Assembly (NCBI RefSeq): GCF_014643835.1 | Contig: NZ_BMKD01000001.1 | Coordinates: 992,001-1,056,000, forward strand | Direction: 5' to 3' | DNA: 64,000 bases | Origin: Mucilaginibacter rubeus | GTDB lineage: Bacteria > Bacteroidota > Bacteroidia > Sphingobacteriales > Sphingobacteriaceae | Part shown: positions 51,705 through 61,828 of the stretch, piece after piece | How the letters are laid out: each line of letters begins with the position of its first letter | Numbering within the stretch: the first letter of the stretch is position 1 | The notes under the pieces: model-generated | Databases searched by the model: none | The model's input: the letters and a program-made list of their open reading frames with translations, nothing else | What the model was told of the DNA's origin: nothing | Position numbers and translations under genes: made by a program

Positions 51705-52481
51705 TTATAGTTTTTGAAAACTTTTGAAGGAATAAAACCGTTCCGACCAGACCATGGTTCTCATTGAAGAAAACTGTCGACCAGGGAGGGTGATGCGCCG
51801 CTGCCGTCCTTCAAACAAAAAGCCTTTACCTAATTCCAGCATAAAGTGCTCCAGTTTATTGATGATGGCGGTCTCCAGATCATTCTCCGAATAGCCGCTA
51901 TCCTCCTTTAAGCCCAAAAACTCCAGTACGAACGGGCTTTTCAACGCGCGAATGGGTTCTTAGCTTGTTTGACCTGCCTCCGCACCATCCGGTACGCATT
52001 TTTTATCGCGGCTTAACGCCAGCCGCTCGAACAGGGAAGAATTGTACTGACGCTGCAATTCCCGGACTGACCAGTTATTCGTTACCGATTGCTGCTCATA
52101 AAATTCCCGTTCACCGGGGTCGGCAATCTTCATTAACTGGATGTAATGTGTCCAGCTTAATTTGAACAGACCGGAAAACGCAATCAGTGATTGCGGAATC
52201 TGTTCCTGATATAACAGGTAGAACCTTTTGAAATAGTCCAGGTTACGATGCGAATAACCTTTGCCATATTCGCGCGTCAGCGCTTGACTGAGGTCTTTGA
52301 CGATTGTTTCCGTATAAGCGGCCCGCTGGCTGCCGGCCTGCTCTTCATTGACAATCATTTCACCTATATGATAATAGGTGTAGGTCATTACGGTGTTCAC
52401 ATTCCGAACAACCTCGCTGCGGGATTTTTCGATCAGTTCCCTGACTGACCTGAAAAGTTTGTCATTGGTTAGCTGTTCCAT
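51705..52481 (-). pseudogene. DUF1016 (YhcG-like PD-(D/E)XK nuclease) gene, interrupted
   Basis: The N-terminal DUF1016 domain (RELIEKSRSEVVRNVNTVMT, then REYGKGYSHRNLDYFKRFYL and NNWSVRELQRQYNSSLFERL) reads from 52481 to a TAA at 51960. After that stop the same frame goes on with the C-terminal nuclease start LKSPFVLEFLGLKEDSGYSE and ELGKGFLFEGRQRRITL. It then leaves the family sequence just before the catalytic Lys region and ends at 51705. So there is an in-frame stop in the linker plus a lost C-terminus. Its start codon overlaps by one base the repaired stop of the integrase gene. Confidence 0.8.
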
Positions 52482-53769
52482 TAGCTTACGCGTTTCATTG
52501 CGGGTTTAACATTCGATCTTCTTGCTGCCGGGCGCTTGGGTTCCGGTTTCAGTTTTTCCTTCAGCACGCTCATATCCTCGCTGATCTTTTTAAGCAGTAC
52601 ACGGGCATAGATCTGCGTCGTGGCAATCTTGGTATGGCCATCATTTTGCTGACGGTTTCAATAGATACGTTATTGGCTAAGGTGATCGTCGTGGCAAACG
52701 TGTGGCGGCCTACACCGAAGGTGAGGGTCTTTTTGATACCTAAGATCTTGGCAATCTCTTTAAGGTGCATATTAACCTTCTGGTTGGTGAGGGTCGGAAA
52801 GATCGTGCCGTGGTAAACTGCCCTGGGATCGTCTTCATACTTCTTCATCAGGGCAAGTGCCGGTGCCAGCAAAGGGATATTGGTTGCCTCATTGCTTTTC
52901 TGCCGGAACAGCTTCAGCCATTTTCCACCGTCTTCGCCATCGACCACATTGCGTTCCGTCAGATTCATCAGGTCGACGAACGAAAGGCCGGTATAACAGG
53001 CATATACAAAAAGGTCGCGGATCATGACGAGCGACCCGGAAGCGAACTCATGCTCCTGAACGAGCTTCAGTTCTGAATTGGAAAGGAAGGCTGTTTCTCC
53101 CTTCTTATACCGGAACCTGTAATTTTTGAAGGGGTCTTTATTGATCCATTGCAGTTTGAAAGCCAGCGTGGTCATCTTGCGCAGTCGGATCAAATGTTTC
53201 ATCACACCATTATTGTTGATCGGCTGAGGGTGGTCAGCTGGCTTGTGATTGCGCAAATACGTTTCAAAATCGACGATAAATTTGTAGTCGATCTCATGGA
53301 TGCGGATATCGGTGGTCTTGCGTTTCTCTTTCAGGAACTTTTCCAGGTAGCACCGGGTCACCGTGTAGTGCTTAAGGGTACTCCAGGTGAATGCTGCCGA
53401 AGCGACCTCATAATGATAATCCATCAGCCTGCTGAGCGAGTAGGTTTCCTCAGTTACTTCGCCGAGGAAGCAAGCTTTGAGTAAAGCCGGCGTGATCTCT
53501 TTTCCGGCGATCTGCAATTGCCGGTAGTAGGCGGTAATGGTGAATCTGACCTGCTCCAGATAGGTGTTGGATTCTTTGGCTTCCGGCAGCCTGACCTTGA
53601 CACAGCCGCGTCCTTTGTCCCAGCTTTCTGCATTCACGAAATGCGGCAGGGCAATGATTACTTTTTCCTTGTTGACCGTGATCGAGGCGTAAACCTTGGT
53701 TTTACCATCTTCTTTTTCTCTTCCTTTCTTGATGCTGAAATGCACACCAAACGACTGCGATGTTTTCAT
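52481..53769 (-). pseudogene. tyrosine integrase with one-base frameshift near the C-terminus
   Basis: A Bacteroidota site-specific recombinase: arm-binding domain (about 1-90, FGVHFSIKKGREKEDGKTKV), core-binding SAM-like domain (about 110-215) and catalytic domain. The first Arg box is in FVYACYTGLSFVDLMNLTE and the second in GVGRHTFATT. At about 52638 one G is missing from MMGHTK: the actual frame ends 399 residues long in LPRRRSMPVYCL, while adding one base gives MMGHTKIATTQIYARVLLKK with the catalytic Tyr and a stop at 52481, 429 aa in total. GC content is higher than in neighbouring genes. Either a recent mutation or a sequencing error. Confidence 0.82.
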
Positions 53770-54293: not shown

Positions 54294-54839
54294 ATGGACT
54301 TACCACAGCGGATTTTTCTTGATACCTCTGTTATCAATTTTATCGTAGACCATTCGGAAAGCATTTTTGACGGCGGTGAGATAAGTGAAAGTGTAAATGA
54401 TCGTGCTTACGATGATATCCGCGCGATGATGAGGATTTTTTATTATGCCGATCATAATGCAATTGAAATGATAATTTCGAAGACCACATTCCAAGAAATA
54501 AACGCTACCACGGATCAAGAGAAAAAAGAAAAGCTAAAAAAATATTGCGATGAGCTTTGGATGTATTTTCATTACCTTATCGAAGATGATTATACTGCGC
54601 CTGGGCTAGAGGTAAAATATTATGAAGAATATTTACTCGATAAGGGATTAGGTCAATTATCTGATGCCAATGACCGGCAGCTTATTATTGAAGCGCTATT
54701 TTATAAGTGCGATATTTTCTGTACCCGTGATTGGAAAACGATATTGAAGCATCGGCAACTGCTGAAACAAAAAATCCCATTAGAAATTTTAACCCCGTTA
54801 GAATGGTGTTTAAGATATGAGTACAAGAAAGCATATTAA
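54294..54839 (+). CDS. PIN-domain nuclease-like protein
   Basis: A 181-aa protein with the PIN pattern IFLDTSVINFIVDH (D10), E68 in TTFQEINATT, SDANDRQLIIEALF (D127) and CDIFCTRDWKTILK (D146). These acids normally bind the metal used to cut RNA. No small antitoxin gene precedes it. It is followed after 15 bp by the DUF4365 gene, so the pair is probably one transcript. It could be a toxin or a defence effector. Confidence 0.8.
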   Translation: MDLPQRIFLDTSVINFIVDHSESIFDGGEISESVNDRAYDDIRAMMRIFYYADHNAIEMIISKTTFQEINATTDQEKKEKLKKYCDELWMYFHYLIEDDYTAPGLEVKYYEEYLLDKGLGQLSDANDRQLIIEALFYKCDIFCTRDWKTILKHRQLLKQKIPLEILTPLEWCLRYEYKKAY

Positions 54840-54854
54840 CTGCCGCAAAATACC

Positions 54855-55769
54855 ATGAATAGATATTCCTCAACAGACAGAATTGGAATCAATCATGTAG
54901 AAAGTTTCTTTTTACAAAATGGCTGGATACCAAGAACAATTCTTCAGTCTGATGTCGGTTTAGATATGGAAGTAGAGATTTCCGAAGATGGAATGCCGAC
55001 AGGTCAACTGTTGGGTATCCAGATAAAAACGGGGAAAAGCTATTTCAATGAAGCTTCAGAGGGCAATATCATTTTTCGTGGGTCAACCACGCATTTAGAA
55101 TACTGGCTAAATCATAGTTTGCCAATTCTTATCATTCTTCACAATGACGCCACTAATCAAACAATTTGGCAAAAAATAACTGAAAAAACAATAATTAGAA
55201 CTACAAAATCCTTCAAAGTTGCCATCCCGATCAACAACGCACTAAATGTTGCCGTCTTAAACAAGCTTAAGAAATTAAATAAATACCCTATCTATATTCA
55301 AAGATTGCAGCGTCTGGCCATTCATAAGCAGCTGATGTTGTTTATTAAAAATGATGAAAAGGTAATAATAGAATTACAGGAATGGGTCAACAAATCAATT
55401 GGCAGGGCTACAATAACAATAAAAAAACTTGACCACAATGGAGATGAACTTGTGTTAAGTGAAGGCGGCTACATATTTTTCAAGGGGCTGGAAGATTTGG
55501 AGGTGCTATTTCCCTGGGCAGATTTTTACATAGATGATGATTTCTATGAGGAAAGTGATGAAAACGATTATCATGCAACCTATGGTGAGCATCCACCTTA
55601 CAGTTTTAGTGAATATCGAGAGCACTTACCTGATGTTCGTGCTATAGATCTGAATGGCGAAGTTCATTTATACCGGTTCGAGGTAAGCCTTAACGAAATT
55701 GCTCAATCTTTTCTTGTTTTACATGATTTTTTAGAAGGTGGACAGCAGACGAAATTGAAATTGGGTTAA
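54855..55769 (+). CDS. DUF4365 domain protein (nuclease-like)
   Basis: A 304-aa protein. The DUF4365 region (about 8-130) shows IGINHVESFFLQNGWIPRTI, then DVGLDMEVEI (D33, D37, E39) and LLGIQIKTGKSYF (Q56, K58), a PD-(D/E)XK-like order. STTHLEYWLNHSLPILIIL follows, as usual for the family. The C-terminal 170 residues are unrecognised and acidic (DFYIDDDFYEESDENDYHAT). It is coupled to the PIN gene and convergent with the methylase operon, with 10 bp between stops. DUF4365 proteins are common in defence islands. Confidence 0.78.
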   Translation: MNRYSSTDRIGINHVESFFLQNGWIPRTILQSDVGLDMEVEISEDGMPTGQLLGIQIKTGKSYFNEASEGNIIFRGSTTHLEYWLNHSLPILIILHNDATNQTIWQKITEKTIIRTTKSFKVAIPINNALNVAVLNKLKKLNKYPIYIQRLQRLAIHKQLMLFIKNDEKVIIELQEWVNKSIGRATITIKKLDHNGDELVLSEGGYIFFKGLEDLEVLFPWADFYIDDDFYEESDENDYHATYGEHPPYSFSEYREHLPDVRAIDLNGEVHLYRFEVSLNEIAQSFLVLHDFLEGGQQTKLKLG

Positions 55770-55779
55770 ACCAACGTAA

Positions 55780-57657
55780 TTAACTTTTTGTAACAATTTC
55801 AGAGTTTGAAAGCTGGTACAGTTCAGATACATAACTGTTTGAGTCTTTTATTTTTAATAGTTTTAATTTTTCAATTTCATTTAGTTGGTAAACGCCAAAG
55901 TTTTTTAAATAGTTTCGGCTCATCGAAATGTAACCGGAGGCATAATCTTTTGTTGTCGCCTTGATATATTCAAAAAACACATCAGACTCCAATATTTTTT
56001 GAAGCGTTACAAGTTTTTCTTTTGTATCCGCGATTACAGCGATTCCGTTATAAAATAGCAAATCTCTATTTTCAGATATCACAAATGTTGGTCGTTCGCA
56101 TATATGAGGAAAAAAAAGTTTGAAAGCATCAATGTCCATTGATTGCCGCCGACCAAACGCGTACCATTCCTCGTATTCCCTTTTGCCTTTGTCCCTTGTA
56201 GCTAATATTTCTCTTTTTGTAAGTAAATACTCAAATGCCTTTGGATATTCCCGTTGAAAATCAGACTCTCTTATTATAGCAGTATTCCCATTCAGAATTA
56301 AATAGGGAAATATTATCTTCTCCAGCTTCGTTTGTATGTCATCAGTAGTCTTCAACTTATTTGCGTTAACAATATCGCGGCACACTTTTTTCTCAATTGG
56401 AAACACAGCGCCGCCATCTTGCAAAAAGTAAAATTCATTATCCTCTCGTACAGGAATAAATTTATATACGTCATTTTTTAAGGTAGCAATTCCATTTTTA
56501 GTTGTGTAAAGGTCTTTAAAAGGTTTACCTGTACTTTCAACGAGTTGGACGTACATTTCAAGTTTCTTAGTGTTTACAAGATTCCACCCGTCTTTATGGT
56601 TTAGTTGATTATAATGAGTTTGATAAAAATCAGTCGGCCCTATGGTAAGCAACTTGTCACTCTGCGTTCTAAAATAACTAATTGAACCTACAGTTTTAGA
56701 GATAAAACAAAGGCATGTATAAGTATTTCTCCCCTTGAAAACCTGCTCGCCACCAAAATTTATAATTTTGAGACTAACTTGATTTTCTGCAAAGTATTCT
56801 CTTAAAGCCCGCCCATTAATACTTTTCATAAAAGTATTAACAGTAATATATCCGAGCGAACCGCCGGGTGCCAACGCTTCGTAACCGATTTGAAAGAATG
56901 GAATATAAAGATCGGGATGCCCAGTTTTAGAAACACTCCAATTCGACATCAATTTAAGAGTGTGATTATCCATATTCCGAGATGCAACATAGGGCGGGTT
57001 ACCTGCTATGATGTCAAACCCCTGATTTTCGGATATTTTTGGATGAGTTTCTAACCAATCATATTCCAAAGAATTTCCTACTTCTATGTTAAACTCAAAT
57101 TCAACATCCTCACCTTGAAACAATGCAAATAGGGACAACAATAGTTTGGATCGTATTGTGCTATATTCAGTAATGTCAATACCATAAATATTTTCATTGT
57201 AAATATCAAAATAGCTTTTTCCTGTTTTTTCATGGATTACAGATGCCATTGTTACTAAAAAGCCTCCACAGCCACACGAAATATCAGCGCAACACAAATT
57301 ACCAATAGGTTTATTTGAAGCCTCTAAGAGGTTTAAAACAATATAATTTCTAATAAATTCAGGAGTATAAACAGCGCCGTTAATTATTTTATCCGCAGGC
57401 GATACCACAAATTCAAATAATTCAATAAGATTTTCAAAGTTAAAATCCCTTACGGCTCCGTTAATTAGAATAATAAATTTTTCAAGTTGGGTAGATTCGT
57501 CATCGTTCTTTTCGCTTTTGATAATATATCCTTTTAGAAAGGAATTTTTTACGTCGAATTTACTATTTAAATTTAAAAATGAGGTTACAATTAACCTGTC
57601 AATTAATAAAGGAGAACTTGAATATTGCTTTAAAAAGTTAAATACATCGGCATTCAT
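55780..57657 (-). CDS. N6-adenine DNA methylase (class I, type I/IIG-like)
   Basis: About 625 aa if started at the ATG at 57657, which follows the upstream stop by one base (TGA-T-ATG). The in-frame ATG at 57714 would overlap the neighbour. It has GAVYTPEFIRNYIVLNLLEA, then SAM-binding motif I ADISCGCGGFLVT and the catalytic NPPYVASRN. A TaqI-like C-terminal specificity region follows (SYFRTQSDKLLTIGPTDFYQ, ending in KDYASGYISMSRNYLKNFGV). No nuclease domain is seen in it. It should methylate adenine in DNA, possibly as the self mark of a restriction or defence system run by the coupled kinase and receiver genes. Confidence 0.88.
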   Translation of the reverse strand: MNADVFNFLKQYSSSPLLIDRLIVTSFLNLNSKFDVKNSFLKGYIIKSEKNDDESTQLEKFIILINGAVRDFNFENLIELFEFVVSPADKIINGAVYTPEFIRNYIVLNLLEASNKPIGNLCCADISCGCGGFLVTMASVIHEKTGKSYFDIYNENIYGIDITEYSTIRSKLLLSLFALFQGEDVEFEFNIEVGNSLEYDWLETHPKISENQGFDIIAGNPPYVASRNMDNHTLKLMSNWSVSKTGHPDLYIPFFQIGYEALAPGGSLGYITVNTFMKSINGRALREYFAENQVSLKIINFGGEQVFKGRNTYTCLCFISKTVGSISYFRTQSDKLLTIGPTDFYQTHYNQLNHKDGWNLVNTKKLEMYVQLVESTGKPFKDLYTTKNGIATLKNDVYKFIPVREDNEFYFLQDGGAVFPIEKKVCRDIVNANKLKTTDDIQTKLEKIIFPYLILNGNTAIIRESDFQREYPKAFEYLLTKREILATRDKGKREYEEWYAFGRRQSMDIDAFKLFFPHICERPTFVISENRDLLFYNGIAVIADTKEKLVTLQKILESDVFFEYIKATTKDYASGYISMSRNYLKNFGVYQLNEIEKLKLLKIKDSNSYVSELYQLSNSEIVTKS

Positions 57658-57658
57658 A

Positions 57659-58450
57659 TCAAAGTAATTGCGGCCATATATCCTTTGCTTTCCAGCAATT
57701 TGGTGTTTTGGCACTCATTCCAAAATGCTGAGATAAACTGGTAATAAATGGTAAAACAGTTCGTTTTTGGGAGCGCTGCAATACCCCAATATAGGTCTGA
57801 TCTGAACGGAGTTTTTTCCAGGTCTTAGGGCTAAAATTTGAAGTTATAAAATCTATTCCTAAAACGATATCCATAGGGTAATGCATGAATCTTGGGCTGT
57901 CAATAAATAACGAATGCCCAAAATTATTGTTAGATACTTTTTTTAGGCGGTGACCCCCAAGCTGAAAATGGTATATTGGATGAACTTCCTCCGGATGATT
58001 TCCACCCGTTATATGCCGGTCGAGGTGGTACGACAAAATGTGATAATTTCCTTTCCTGGATAATCCTTCCAGTACCAAATTAAATTCCAAATGATGAAAA
58101 GGGTCTAATATTTCTGTACTCTTATCATAAGCGCCGGATAAAGAAATATCGAAAGTCAATTTACCTGTTTTTACACTTAAAGGATATTGAATTCCTGTGG
58201 TATCTACAGTAAATACCAAATTTTTAGCAGTATAACCCCAACTCATTGGGGTACTTTGTTTGACATCCTGCCCATTAACGACCGTATTTACTGGAGGCAA
58301 ATAATTTGGATTATTTAATTCTTTAATAGCTGTGTCAATAGTATCTATGGTTCGTTTTTCCAAATTCACTTTTAAAAGACTCGCCTTTAATAATGTTAAA
58401 TCCCTGGCAATGTCATTCCGGAATTTTTGGTTGTCAGTATTGATATTCAT
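57659..58450 (-). CDS. unknown protein of the kinase-receiver-methylase operon
   Basis: A 263-aa protein with no signal peptide or membrane helix. A helical N-terminus (about 1-50, NDIARDLTLLKASLLKVNLE) is followed by a beta-rich part with a run of His (YHILSYHLDRHITGGNHPEE and VHPIYHFQLGGHRLKK) and RFMHYPMDIVLGIDFITSNF. I do not recognise the family. The His/Asp-rich stretch (H at LSYH, DRH, HPEEVHP, YHF) could bind metal, as in a nuclease or hydrolase, but this is a guess. Spacing is 2 bp after the receiver gene and 1 bp before the methylase. Confidence 0.8.
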   Translation of the reverse strand: MNINTDNQKFRNDIARDLTLLKASLLKVNLEKRTIDTIDTAIKELNNPNYLPPVNTVVNGQDVKQSTPMSWGYTAKNLVFTVDTTGIQYPLSVKTGKLTFDISLSGAYDKSTEILDPFHHLEFNLVLEGLSRKGNYHILSYHLDRHITGGNHPEEVHPIYHFQLGGHRLKKVSNNNFGHSLFIDSPRFMHYPMDIVLGIDFITSNFSPKTWKKLRSDQTYIGVLQRSQKRTVLPFITSLSQHFGMSAKTPNCWKAKDIWPQLL

Positions 58451-58452
58451 GA

Positions 58453-59532
58453 TTACAAGTCTGCTATTTCAACTGAATATCTTTCCACCTCGGACGGGTG
58501 AATTACCACTCCGTCTCTTTCAGCAAGCCTCTCGATCAAAGCAAATAAAGAAACATAGTTGTAGTCTTGCCATGGTTTTGGTTCTGACTTCATATCTATC
58601 TTAAAGGCCTCATAGGGATCAATCGGTTGTTTTGTCACAACGCAAACAGTCCAATAGTTGGTACTAAAATTAAATTTAAGAGGTTTGGCAGCCACAATTT
58701 TTTCACCTACAATTGGTAATAATAAGGCAACTCTTTCCTCAGCATTTAACCCAGCAAGATTATCTCTTGTGAGATCGCTAAAAATTTCTGAAACAGAATC
58801 GCTCCACCATCTGTCCCAACTTTCATGAAATACCCCTTTATATTTTGCCTCAATAAATAATTTATCCCTGACAATTTCCCAGTTTGAAGATTCCTTTATA
58901 TCAATTCCTAATCTTGCCGCTAAAATATCCTCATTAATTAAAACTCCGGTAGGTTGGACAATATCTTTAAAAATTACACGAGCAATTTCATGCACTGGGG
59001 GATTTTCTTCATTAATGAATCTTGATAAAATTCTATTATCTATTGAAGCATAATCTCTTTCGAGTAACTTGCTAAAATCTTTAAGATTGGCAGCTATTCT
59101 CTGATAGCCTAATATAATCGAGGAAATCTTCTTTATTGTATGATCCCCGATTTCATTTTTCAAAAATGTCCAATCGAATAAATCATGACTCGTGAAATCT
59201 CTTTTAAATGAATCTTTTATTCTGTCATCTGTGGAACAAAGAAATATCGGAATATCGGGTATTTTTTTTTCGGTAGCCAACGTTCTAACGGTTTGGGCCA
59301 ATGGTGGTGCTTGGTATTTAACCTTTGTACCATCTTCCTGGTCACCGTTCAATTGTAGGTCAAGGAAAAGACCATTATAGTCTTTCAATATGCCTTCTAA
59401 ACTGTCTAATTCTGATTCGAATGCCACAGGCTTTTCCCATTTGACATCCAACTCTCCTGTAGATTTTAATTTATTGACGATTGGTTGTATTAAATCAGCT
59501 TTTTCGTCATCAAGATAGAATACTTTATACAT
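58453..59532 (-). CDS. response-regulator-like protein with unknown output domain
   Basis: A 359-aa protein. Residues 1-140 form a receiver: acidic pair D8/D9 (FYLDDEKADL), phospho-acceptor D58 (NGLFLDLQLNG), switch S100/T101 (IFLCSTDDR) and K125 (FDWTFLKNEIG). All switch positions are present. The remaining 220 residues are an unrecognised alpha-rich domain (LSRFINEENPPVHEIARVIF, KYKGVFHESWDRWWSDSVSE, VALLLPIVGEKIVAAKPLKF), not a normal DNA-binding output. It starts 7 bp after the kinase gene, so it is the obvious phosphorylation partner. Confidence 0.85.
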   Translation of the reverse strand: MYKVFYLDDEKADLIQPIVNKLKSTGELDVKWEKPVAFESELDSLEGILKDYNGLFLDLQLNGDQEDGTKVKYQAPPLAQTVRTLATEKKIPDIPIFLCSTDDRIKDSFKRDFTSHDLFDWTFLKNEIGDHTIKKISSIILGYQRIAANLKDFSKLLERDYASIDNRILSRFINEENPPVHEIARVIFKDIVQPTGVLINEDILAARLGIDIKESSNWEIVRDKLFIEAKYKGVFHESWDRWWSDSVSEIFSDLTRDNLAGLNAEERVALLLPIVGEKIVAAKPLKFNFSTNYWTVCVVTKQPIDPYEAFKIDMKSEPKPWQDYNYVSLFALIERLAERDGVVIHPSEVERYSVEIADL

Positions 59533-59539
59533 TATTTAA

Positions 59540-61828
59540 TTAGGCTTTAGGTAATTCAATTCTTATAGTGGTGGTAAATCCGTCTGTGGGTTCTTTCACA
59601 AAAATATCACCACCATAACCTTCGACAATATCCCTTACAATTTTCAATCCTATTCCAGTACCGGTTAGTTCTTCCATTTCATTTGCAGAATTACCAGACG
59701 GCGCACTTGTTGTAAAGAATGGGGTAAATATTTTGTCCTCGTTTTCTTTAGGAATGCCAATACCATTATCTGAAAATTCCAAATAAACTATGTCATCAGC
59801 TTTCCCAGCCTTAATGTGTATTAACCCTTTAACTTTGGTTTTCTTAATAGCCTTTTTTGAATTGGTATAAAAATTAAACAGAATGGATGCCCACTCAGAC
59901 ATATGCATCGGGCAGGTGAATAAATGATAGCCAATAAATTCAGGCTTTTCCAATGTAATTCCTGATCTAATAAGGTCAGGAGAAATTACATCCGAAAACT
60001 TGTAAACAGCATCTCGCAATTCTATTACTTCTAATTCCCGGTTTACATTTTTAGAAATAGCTTCTTTAAAATAAGAAGTGTAAACAGTGAAAGCCGCCAA
60101 ATTGTCTTGCAAGCGGACTCCAGTAGTTTTACCTTCTTCAGTGTTAACTAAGCTGGTTAGTAATTCGGCATCGTATTTAAATGCTGGTTCATAATGATTT
60201 ATTTCATGCACAAACTCACCTATCGTCAATCCCAGTCCTGCTAAAATTCTTAATAATTGAATTTCCTTTAAGAGTTCCTTTTTAACCGCCTCTGCTTCGA
60301 TTTTTTCTTCTATTGTAATTTCTTCTACTTCAACCAACTTTTGTTCTATAACTCTTAGGGTGTCATTAAAAGAGGCTTGAACTTCTTCAGGAGGTGAATT
60401 TGAATTACTTGTAGATTTTATAATACTTTCCAAATCCTCTTTTACTTCTTGTAGAACCTGAGAAGAAGACCGTCCTGTCCAATTTTTTTGAGCAGCTGTA
60501 CCTTTACGTTCCCTTAAAAAAGATATTTTGAGGGCTACATCGGTTAGTACTTTATATCCAAAATCTTGTAATTCAGATAATGATTCATTGGCTAATAACC
60601 CCTCGCGACTTGACTGTTCTTGAAAATTAATCCCATTGGGGTCAATCAATTCAATAAATCCAAAAAAGTTGATATTGGAGTGCGGAGTGATAAACGTTCT
60701 TCTTCGAGCGGAGGCATCTAAACCTAACCAATCGTCATCCTTTTCACCGTATGGCAATACCCGAAACCCATTTCTATATAACCTTATCCCACCATTTTCA
60801 CGAGCATTTTGCCTTATGTATGTTTCTATTTTTTTAGGGATAAGTCCGACATTATAAATGAAATAATAGGCTTTCAGATGAATGTTTTTTAATGAATTGA
60901 ATTTATCATCTCGTTCTTTTTTGCCGATTAAATCGATGTCATCCTGATTAGTTACCCCTAACTTGTGGCTGGTAAATGAATAATAACCTTGCCCATCGTC
61001 ATCAACGTAAGCTTCAATTTCGGCAAGGGAATGTTGAAAGAATGCACTTTCGACATCAATTATGGTTTCGCCATTTTTATAAAATGAAACAATAAATCCT
61101 GGATCATTCTCACTTTGTTGAAAGCGAGTTGAAAGTGGAAATGGCTGTAATAATTCAGAAATATATTTGTAGGCCCGACTGATCATTGTATCAGTCCAAA
61201 TATCCCTTACATTTTCAATTAACAGCGTTGTACCTTCAGGCTTCTCTTTATCAACTTCAACAATAGAATTAGTAACTAATAAAAGATTTGTATCTATGGC
61301 GTAATTATCCCAGTTAACTGTAACTTTCAAAGCCTTATCCGATGCTAAGGTTTGAGTTATAATGGTCAAAACCTGGCCAATCCTTTGAGTTGCAAACCTG
61401 CCAATTCCCTTTTGACCTGCTCGCGATCTTTTATAACGTGGAGATTTTGGGTTATGAATTTTATCGCTGGAAGATATTGTCATAAAACCCTTGACCAGTT
61501 GTTCCCTGGTCATCCCTAAACCATTATCATCAATTGTGACATTGCCTCCAATTTGAGAACATCCATTAAAATAAAGATTTACTGTTGTTGCATCTGCGTC
61601 ATATGCATTTTTAACAAGTTCGGCCACTGCTGATTCATGTCGCCCTACAAGTTCTTTGCCCAATCGATTAATTACTCCTGCATCAACAGAAAAACGGATA
61701 TTATCCTGATCCAAGGACGCTATTTCATGTGAAATGGACAATAAAACATTATTGTCGGAAACACCTTTTTGTAATTCTGCATTAAGTTGTTCTTTTAATA
61801 ATTTTATTTGTTTTTCAATGTCAGTCAT
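59540..61828 (-). CDS. dual-GHKL ATPase / histidine kinase
   Basis: A 762-aa cytoplasmic protein with two ATP-binding GHKL lobes. Lobe 1 (about 45-230) is Hsp90/MORC-like: AVAELVKNAYDADA (67-80), DDNGLGM (100-106), GQKGIGRFA (138-146). A middle region (about 240-440) has RLYRNGFRVLPYGEKDDDW, as in Hsp90-like proteins. A coiled coil (about 485-530) leads to the kinase His in EFVHEINHYE (H541). The kinase lobe 2 follows: FNFYTNSKKAIKK (651-663), SDNGIGIP (686-693), IFTPFF, and GTGIGLKI (723-730). No sensor membrane domain is present, so it probably senses an internal signal. First gene of the four-gene operon. Confidence 0.9.
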   Translation of the reverse strand: MTDIEKQIKLLKEQLNAELQKGVSDNNVLLSISHEIASLDQDNIRFSVDAGVINRLGKELVGRHESAVAELVKNAYDADATTVNLYFNGCSQIGGNVTIDDNGLGMTREQLVKGFMTISSSDKIHNPKSPRYKRSRAGQKGIGRFATQRIGQVLTIITQTLASDKALKVTVNWDNYAIDTNLLLVTNSIVEVDKEKPEGTTLLIENVRDIWTDTMISRAYKYISELLQPFPLSTRFQQSENDPGFIVSFYKNGETIIDVESAFFQHSLAEIEAYVDDDGQGYYSFTSHKLGVTNQDDIDLIGKKERDDKFNSLKNIHLKAYYFIYNVGLIPKKIETYIRQNARENGGIRLYRNGFRVLPYGEKDDDWLGLDASARRRTFITPHSNINFFGFIELIDPNGINFQEQSSREGLLANESLSELQDFGYKVLTDVALKISFLRERKGTAAQKNWTGRSSSQVLQEVKEDLESIIKSTSNSNSPPEEVQASFNDTLRVIEQKLVEVEEITIEEKIEAEAVKKELLKEIQLLRILAGLGLTIGEFVHEINHYEPAFKYDAELLTSLVNTEEGKTTGVRLQDNLAAFTVYTSYFKEAISKNVNRELEVIELRDAVYKFSDVISPDLIRSGITLEKPEFIGYHLFTCPMHMSEWASILFNFYTNSKKAIKKTKVKGLIHIKAGKADDIVYLEFSDNGIGIPKENEDKIFTPFFTTSAPSGNSANEMEELTGTGIGLKIVRDIVEGYGGDIFVKEPTDGFTTTIRIELPKA

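What the first reader, a model, noticed from the sequence alone, without database searches (positions are those of the whole stretch)
55780..61828. Four-gene operon: dual-GHKL histidine kinase, receiver protein, unknown protein and N6-adenine methylase
Gaps of 7, 2 and 1 bp show strict coupling. The kinase has an Hsp90/MORC-like ATPase lobe plus a full histidine-kinase lobe with H541 and no membrane sensor. The receiver has all switch residues (D58, T101, K125) but a non-DNA-binding-like output. The last gene is a DNA methylase without an obvious restriction nuclease. This looks like a phosphorelay that controls DNA modification or an effector, possibly an anti-phage system. It is reminiscent of, but not the same gene set as, two-component-like defence such as Detocs. 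Neighbouring PIN and DUF4365 genes, an integrase and an att remnant support an island context.
Basis: partly seen in the sequence, partly recalled or inferred. Interest (0 to 1): 0.82.

Follow-up and report, generated by a model that had tools for sequence, protein, structure and literature searches.

The report
Phosphorelay trio paired with DNA modification
A bacterial gene set couples a cytoplasmic sensor kinase, its receiver and a conserved third protein to a DNA-marking enzyme, and because relatives swap that enzyme for other DNA-marking systems, the trio looks like an unstudied 'attack' half of a self/non-self DNA defence.

Summary
In detail: four co-directional genes (gaps 7, 2, 1 bp) for an HK with two GHKL lobes, a receiver protein (RR), a 263-aa protein (X) and an Eco57I/CamA-like N6-adenine methylase. 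They are a conserved unit: 38 loci keep complete HK-RR-X in order, mostly Bacteroidota, also Chloroflexota and Psychrobacter. The modification partner is exchangeable: 33 have this methylase, two Chloroflexota loci have another methylase family, and in three HK directly follows the phosphorothioation gene sspD. That resembles the restriction half of a modification-coupled defence more than a methylase regulator. HK and RR catalytic residues are nearly invariant. X is probably a remote relative of DUF2290, known from an anti-T7 helicase system. Bellieny-Rabelo 2021 already described paraMORC-type HKs plus Response_reg_2 proteins beside R-M genes (PMC8011034); this lineage fails both of its Pfam models, except one HK of 29. 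My literature searches found no description of the HK-RR-X trio or of its link to Ssp. Verdict: new variant of a known kind, probably anti-phage; trigger and effector unproven.

The parts
59540..61828 (-). HK: soluble dual-GHKL sensor kinase (N-terminal MutL/MORC-like ATPase lobe, linker, H541 region, C-terminal HATPase_c 648-760)
   Evidence: Pfam PF13589 at 65-178 and PF02518; 29 of 29 family members carry both; E70, N74, D101, G103, G105, K140, H541, E542, N652, D687, G723, G725 identical in 38 of 38
58453..59532 (-). RR: receiver domain (about 1-150) plus an unclassified, mostly helical C-terminal domain with RWW and C297 motifs
   Evidence: AlphaFold2 pLDDT 89; Foldseek matches to receiver structures; D9 and D58 in 38 of 38, S/T100 in 38 of 38, K125 in 37 of 38, W243 and C297 in 38 of 38
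57659..58450 (-). X: 263-aa protein, probable remote DUF2290 relative, candidate effector
   Evidence: model pLDDT 87; H142, D144, P158, H161, P186, R187, P192 in 38 of 38; hhalign to DUF2290 score 48.1, against at most 21.3 in 150 column shuffles
55780..57657 (-). N6-adenine DNA methylase of Eco57I/CamA type (start taken at the ATG)
   Evidence: Pfam Eco57I 8.5e-31; PADLOC MTase_II PDLC03335 4.4e-99; family profile matches CamA 7lni 4.8e-35 (name recalled; the record says adenine-specific methyltransferase) and BseCI 6e-25
54855..55769 (+). convergent DUF4365 neighbour, not part of the conserved set
   Evidence: Pfam DUF4365 2.5e-31; PADLOC model Aga_REase-PNTD1-PNTD2 1.3e-17

Best explanation
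HK-RR-X is a phosphorelay-gated restriction (anti-phage) module paired with a DNA modification module that marks self DNA; in this window the marker is an N6-adenine methylase. Proposed working: (1) the methylase marks host DNA (inferred from family). (2) The N-terminal GHL ATPase lobe of HK, of the MutL/MORC/paraMORC kind, clamps on or samples DNA, and unmarked or otherwise foreign DNA changes its ATP cycle (inferred). (3) The C-terminal lobe phosphorylates H541 and the phosphate passes to D58 of RR (residues shown intact; reaction inferred). (4) Phosphorylated RR, through its non-standard C-terminal domain, switches on X, whose conserved His/Asp/Arg set is taken as the active site of an effector acting on nucleic acid (inferred; weakest step). 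Shown here: gene set, order, conservation, intact residues, exchange of the modification partner, and a probable DUF2290 link. Not shown: any activity.
For: HK-RR-X in one order and strand in 38 of 38 loci, with junctions of -14 to +12 bp in the 27 loci measured, two artefacts apart. Partner exchange: methylase family A in 33; family B (PADLOC PDLC03267) in two Chloroflexota loci, upstream of HK in one and after X in the other; sspD directly upstream of HK in three loci. A comparable exchange is known: in Vibrio the unrelated three-gene SspFGH stands beside sspBCD where no SspE was detected (PMC8092258, passages). Over the same 30 loci, distances correlate best within the trio for HK-RR (0.94) and RR-X (0.90), and worst for X-methylase (0.61). 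X is probably related to DUF2290, part of an anti-T7 system. Defence neighbours: a Piwi protein and a type IIG-like enzyme on the Hymenobacter plasmid; AbiEii directly upstream of HK, confirmed by PADLOC in four loci.
Against: No nuclease signature in X or RR; Foldseek finds nothing for X with E <= 0.001 in PDB or BFVD. A plain DUF2290 HMM does not hit the 38 X proteins, nor an X HMM the 8 DUF2290 proteins, at E up to 10. HK correlates with the methylase as well as with X (0.81 each). The three Ssp loci form one HK clade (98/100), so that exchange may have happened once. L073 also has type I R-M genes on the same strand about 1.7 kb downstream of X (methylase 4.9e-162), and L038 has PbeA- and PbeC-like genes nearby, so other restriction candidates exist there. 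Two of the three Ssp genomes encode one unlinked GmrSD-type protein (585 and 609 aa, other contigs) that could be SspE. In L050 RR scores only 51 bits and lacks K125. No phage or methylome data.
Confidence: 0.55

Rival explanations
1. Classical regulatory two-component system: HK and RR control expression or activity of the methylase, and X is an accessory protein.
For: Receiver plus kinase is the usual architecture of regulation; the methylase follows X closely in 33 of 38 loci. Bellieny-Rabelo 2021 also suggested signalling that controls R-M. HK-methylase distances correlate 0.81.
Against: No DNA-binding family is recognised in RR. HK-RR-X persists with unrelated modification genes, including Ssp. 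X is nearly as tightly correlated with RR as HK is (0.90 and 0.94).
Confidence: 0.2
2. Ordinary type II R-M system in which X is simply the site-specific restriction endonuclease for the methylase and HK-RR only set the timing of cutting.
For: The methylase is most like type II enzymes; X lacks an annotated function and lies beside it; the N-terminal GHKL lobe weakly resembles BbrUII/HgiDII restriction enzymes (1.8e-21, far below that model's cut-off). The recognition half of the methylase is nearly as conserved as the catalytic half (47% and 50%), which would suit a fixed target.
Against: X occurs with two methylase families and with Ssp, which a site-specific enzyme should not tolerate without changing its specificity; no PD-(D/E)xK, HNH or GIY family is among the Pfam matches of X.
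Confidence: 0.12
3. Abortive-infection or toxin module: the relay triggers X to harm the cell on infection, and the modification gene or the adjacent AbiE pair serves as antidote or addiction element.
For: AbiEi/AbiEii genes lie directly upstream of HK in several loci; two of 28 X proteins match Pfam AbiTii weakly (best E 0.0025); DUF2290 chemistry is unknown.
Against: Among 89 flanking proteins scanned only 4 match AbiEii, and the scanned neighbours in the window hold none; AbiE looks like a frequent neighbour rather than a part.
Confidence: 0.13

Closest known systems
paraMORC-type HK plus Response_reg_2 TCS-like pair (Bellieny-Rabelo 2021, PMC8011034)
   Same: Soluble HK with N-terminal HATPase_c_3, H-box and C-terminal HATPase_c; adjacent receiver-like gene; R-M neighbourhood
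   Different: Window HK and RR fail PF19191 and PF19192; RR is 359 aa against 561 aa in the example L037; in that example the neighbour reads as a C5 methylase; X and the strict four-gene unit are not described in the parts of the paper I read
Ssp phosphorothioation defence with SspE or SspFGH (PMC8092258)
   Same: Exchangeable restriction module next to a DNA modification module; HK-RR-X directly follows sspD in three relatives
   Different: The window's HK, RR and X show no DUF262/DUF1524 domain; the window uses adenine methylation, not phosphorothioation
Helicase+DUF2290 anti-phage system (PMC9122126)
   Same: X carries a DUF2290-like HPxxH and R...N-F-Y region
   Different: Partner is a helicase there, an HK/RR pair here; X falls outside Pfam DUF2290
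Detocs (recalled, not read)
   Same: Histidine kinase and receiver used for defence
   Different: Sensor lobe here is a GHL ATPase; extra X and a methylase; sequences not compared
CamA-type orphan adenine methylase (PDB 7lni; name recalled)
   Same: Profile match 4.8e-35 over about 366 profile positions
   Different: CamA stands without such a trio (recalled)

Membership tests
Bellieny-Rabelo HEF_HK/Response_reg_2 system | HK with HATPase_c_3 + HEF_HK (PF19191) + HATPase_c | tested here: not met
   HATPase_c_3 and HATPase_c in 29 of 29, PF19191 in only 1 of 29 (6.3e-5), not in the window
Bellieny-Rabelo HEF_HK/Response_reg_2 system | Adjacent Response_reg_2 (PF19192) protein | tested here: not met
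   0 of 29 RR proteins at E up to 10
paraMORC/MORC GHKL ATPases | GHL ATPase motifs with catalytic Glu and an S5-type domain | tested here: inconclusive
   E70, N74, D101-x-G-x-G and G138-x-K in 38 of 38; the S5 part was not tested by a profile
Receiver domain (two-component RR) | (beta-alpha)5 fold with acidic residues, Asp, Ser/Thr, Lys | tested here: met
   model and Foldseek; residues; Pfam itself gives no significant receiver match, only iREC in 5 of 29 at E 0.007 or worse
Type II R-M | Methylase with cognate endonuclease in the operon | tested here: inconclusive
   methylase yes; no recognised nuclease domain in HK, RR or X
Ssp restriction module | Lies with sspBCD | tested here: not met
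   not in the window; met only in relatives L038, L072, L073
Ssp restriction module | SspE domains (DUF262/DUF1524) or SspFGH genes | tested here: not met
   no such match in HK, RR, X of the window; whether PADLOC 2.0 holds SspFGH models was not checked
DUF2290 (PF10053) | Match to the Pfam family | tested here: not met
   0 of 28 X proteins match PF10053 at E up to 10
DUF2290 (PF10053) | Remote homology by profile-profile comparison | tested here: inconclusive
   probability 15%, 66%, 83% and 89.5% with different alignments; score 48.1 against a maximum of 21.3 in 150 shuffles
Detocs | DtcA-DtcB-DtcC gene set, TPR sensor (recalled) | tested here: inconclusive
   no TPR Pfam match in HK; not compared with Detocs sequences
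Anti-phage defence system | Phage protection in a host | not testable with these tools
   needs experiment

The most novel reading that the evidence does not exclude
HK-RR-X is a general 'restriction' cassette in which a GHL-ATPase DNA clamp is wired to a phosphorelay that fires a DUF2290-like effector, and which reads several chemically different self marks (two adenine methylase families and phosphorothioate). It would be a restriction principle where the decision to attack passes through a His-Asp phosphate and not through a site-specific nuclease.
Probability: 0.38. Interest if true: 0.85.

Novelty: new variant of a known kind. Interest (0 to 1): 0.62.

Why it matters
If right, two-component chemistry acts as the gate of modification-coupled immunity, and one attack cassette can be plugged onto unrelated DNA marks. 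It turns the 2021 prediction of a paraMORC-type two-component system beside R-M genes into a testable mechanism with a third partner, and offers a context for the DUF2290 superfamily. The Ssp-linked loci make the key claim directly testable: can HK-RR-X do the work of SspE?

Tried and rejected
E2/ubiquitin-conjugating-like fold for X: suggested by eye from the strand order, not supported (no Foldseek hit with E <= 0.001 in PDB or BFVD; no Cys among the invariant columns); dropped. Photosystem PsaE match to X (E 0.047): noise. Viral-contig scans with RR, X and DUF2290 alignments: none, none and 3 DUF2290 loci. The phage and E. coli collections were not searched. L056 (E 1.9e-4): weak hit with no HK, RR or methylase match in the contig, rejected. 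L021 and L057 were dropped as duplicates of L020 and L009 (all four proteins identical). L018, L027, L034 (broken HK frames), L022 (RR interrupted, contig edge) and L033 (RR truncated) were left out of the 38. The gap table has two artefacts: -133 for L019 (start choice) and 5832 for L025 (another methylase picked; by the coordinates the true gap is 2).

SspE check: in the three Ssp-linked genomes, PF03235 and PF07510 (GmrSD, the domains of SspE) are absent from G333; G1466 and G1479 each have one protein with both, on another contig than the trio; I could not tell whether these are SspE. In L038 eight neighbours were scanned with PADLOC and none was called SspE; in L072 and L073 only 2 and 4 neighbours were scanned.

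Literature: the searches listed no paper that I recognised as describing the HK-RR-X trio or an HK-RR partner of Ssp; listings were cut to 10-20 rows where more papers matched. PMC10853773 has no hit for MORC, GHKL, histidine kinase, receiver or DUF2290. The supplements of PMC8011034 could not be read, so its unnamed orthologous groups might include X. Most subscription-journal papers are not held.
Full report
Observation. The four ORFs, their order, strand and gaps of 7, 2 and 1 bp are as stated, with the methylase starting at its ATG. Pfam finds two GHKL domains in HK and Eco57I/N6_Mtase in the methylase, nothing significant in RR and X. Of the four proteins, PADLOC knows the methylase (MTase_II, 4.4e-99) and, weakly, the first GHKL lobe of HK (2.9e-12). 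AlphaFold2 gives confident models for RR (pLDDT 89) and X (87). Foldseek matches RR to receiver-containing structures (17 hits with E <= 0.001) and finds no relative of X in PDB or BFVD at that level.

Conservation. A Hymenobacter plasmid carries the same four genes in the same order (HK 51%, RR 40%, X 32%, methylase 44% identical), close to a Piwi-domain gene and a DNA methyltransferase. An RR-anchored scan of species genomes gave 33 loci. HK lies directly upstream in 32 of 32 assessable loci (L022 has no upstream sequence), X directly downstream in 31 of 31 (L033 and L034 are cut or broken), and the methylase in 30 of 31, the exception being a Chloroflexi locus, L016. HK frames are broken in L018, L027 and L034. 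In 27 loci measured, all junctions but two artefacts lie between -14 and +12 bp.

Distribution. X-anchored searches show that the family is rare. Matches, centre genome included: 2 of 395 in the phylum of L002's genome (Bacteroidota), 2 of 301 in the phylum of L016's genome (Chloroflexota), 8 of 397 in the family of L005's genome (one rejected as chance), 5 of 149 in the family of G333 (the other four already in the previous set), 3 of 148 in the order of L012's genome and 1 of 239 in the phylum of the Psychrobacter genome, which is the centre itself. After removing duplicates and damaged copies, 38 loci including the window have complete HK, RR and X, all in the same order and on one strand; two of them (L052, L053) share 99% identical HKs.

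The modification partner is exchangeable. Of these 38, 33 carry the window's methylase family after X (31 complete, two cut by contig ends), and five do not. Two Chloroflexota loci carry a different methylase family (PADLOC PDLC03267), upstream of HK in L016 and after X in L050. In the other three (L038, L072, L073) HK starts within about 40 bp of the end of the gene for SspD, behind SspC; SspA is near in all three, and SspB is seen in two, the third contig starting inside SspC. L072's SspC and L073's partial SspA were read by eye and not scored by PADLOC. L073 also has type I R-M genes on the same strand about 1.7 kb downstream of X, and L038 has PbeA- and PbeC-like genes nearby, so these loci are not free of other restriction candidates. 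SspE-type domains are absent from G333, while G1466 and G1479 each have one unlinked protein with both domains that might be SspE or another GmrSD enzyme. In Vibrio the unrelated three-gene SspFGH lies beside sspBCD where no SspE was detected (PMC8092258, passages). HK-RR-X thus sits where a restriction module can sit. The HK tree puts the three Ssp loci in one clade (98/100, with a long-branch warning), so a single exchange may explain them.

Coherence of the trio. Over the same 30 loci, pairwise distances correlate 0.94 (HK-RR), 0.90 (RR-X), 0.81 (HK-X), 0.81 (HK-methylase), 0.75 (RR-methylase) and 0.61 (X-methylase). The trio is thus only partly tighter than its link to the methylase: HK goes with the methylase as well as with X. 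In the larger set none of 500 label permutations reached the observed value for any pair. The recognition half of the methylase is nearly as conserved as the catalytic half (47% against 50%), so the methylases may share a target.

Residues. In 38 of 38 HKs the first lobe keeps E70, N74, D101, G103, G105, G138 and K140, the pattern of ATP-hydrolysing GHL enzymes (recalled), and the second part keeps H541, E542, N652, N656, D687, G689, G723 and G725. RR keeps D9 and D58 in 38 of 38, S/T100 in 38 of 38 and K125 in 37 of 38. X keeps H142, D144, P158, H161, P186, R187 and P192 in 38 of 38.

What X is. X matches no Pfam family significantly; two of 28 members match AbiTii at best E 0.0025. Its C-terminal region resembles DUF2290: HPxxH, then an arginine, then N-F-Y. 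Profile comparison gave 15%, 66%, 83% and 89.5% probability with different alignments. The best score, 48.1, compares with at most 21.3 in 150 column-shuffled controls and 13.9 for the reversed family; for the broader X alignment it was 43.6 against at most 24.0, and the highest score with an unrelated family of this operon was 24.2 (X with RR). Against this, single-profile searches in both directions found nothing at E up to 10, and the aligned region is only about 44 columns. A strict motif is present in 23 of 43 X frames, 6 of 8 DUF2290 proteins and 0 of 710 other frames. I call it probable remote kinship. DUF2290 is known as partner of a helicase in a system that inhibits phage T7 (PMC9122126, passages).

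Prior art. Bellieny-Rabelo 2021 (PMC8011034; abstract, introduction, results and discussion read; supplements not) described soluble HKs with HATPase_c_3 + HEF_HK + HATPase_c, 91.6% linkage to Response_reg_2 proteins, near type II R-M genes with C5 methylases, and proposed signalling that controls R-M. Our HKs share the outer domains, but HEF_HK is met in 1 of 29 and Response_reg_2 in 0 of 29. In a Response_reg_2 example (L037/L039) the RR has 561 aa and a neighbouring protein reads as a C5 methylase (by eye); its HK-like frame matches our HK profile (1.1e-37), while our RR, X, methylase and DUF2290 profiles find nothing there. So the kinases are related and the rest has diverged or been replaced. 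Iyer 2008 (PMC2292703, passages) proposed that MORC and paraMORC ATPases loop DNA in R-M operons. The V. cholerae Shedu work (PMC12137116, passages) shows that a GHKL lobe fused to a nuclease protects against phage and needs its ATPase residue.

Interpretation. The constant trio with exchangeable DNA marking, the DNA-clamp type sensor lobe, the intact His-Asp relay and the defence neighbours (AbiE in several loci, Piwi, type IIG and Ssp genes) fit a modification-coupled restriction module best. Which molecule is sensed, what the C-terminal domain of RR does, and what X does are inferred only.

Verdict. Real, conserved and probably defensive; a new variant of a published kind. The new elements are the third protein and its probable DUF2290 link, the strict four-gene unit, and the exchange between adenine methylases and phosphorothioation.

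Noticed in passing
window 52570-53769 (-): Tyrosine integrase whose last residues do not look like the usual catalytic end of this family, so it may be inactive (read by eye).
   Followed up: no
window 51960-52481 (-): 173-aa ORF holding the DUF1016 N-terminal domain (7.7e-44) and otherwise only a sub-threshold match, perhaps a truncated gene.
   Followed up: no
window 54294-54839 (+) and 54855-55769 (+): Weak PIN-like gene followed by a DUF4365 gene, convergent with the operon; DUF4365 also matches a PADLOC model named Aga_REase-PNTD1-PNTD2.
   Followed up: partly
L014, L023, L025, L033, L054; also L031, L052, L053: AbiE toxin-antitoxin genes upstream of HK; AbiEii confirmed by PADLOC in L023, L025, L033 and L054, AbiEi in L025 and L031; L014 by clustering with L023, L052 and L053 by eye.
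   Followed up: partly
L008, L013, L014, L023: Recurrent shared flanking gene families around the operon, suggesting that related mobile elements carry it.
   Followed up: no
L020 14540-17758 and L008 13746-15356: Large uncharacterised genes downstream of the operon with no PADLOC match.
   Followed up: no
L001 4252-6879, L011, L012: HK frames longer by about 100 residues or more at the N-terminus, possibly an added sensor part; start codons not settled.
   Followed up: no
L038, L072, L073: Ssp phosphorothioation operons whose sspD is directly followed by HK-RR-X, one with PbeA/PbeC-like genes and one with type I R-M genes close by.
   Followed up: partly
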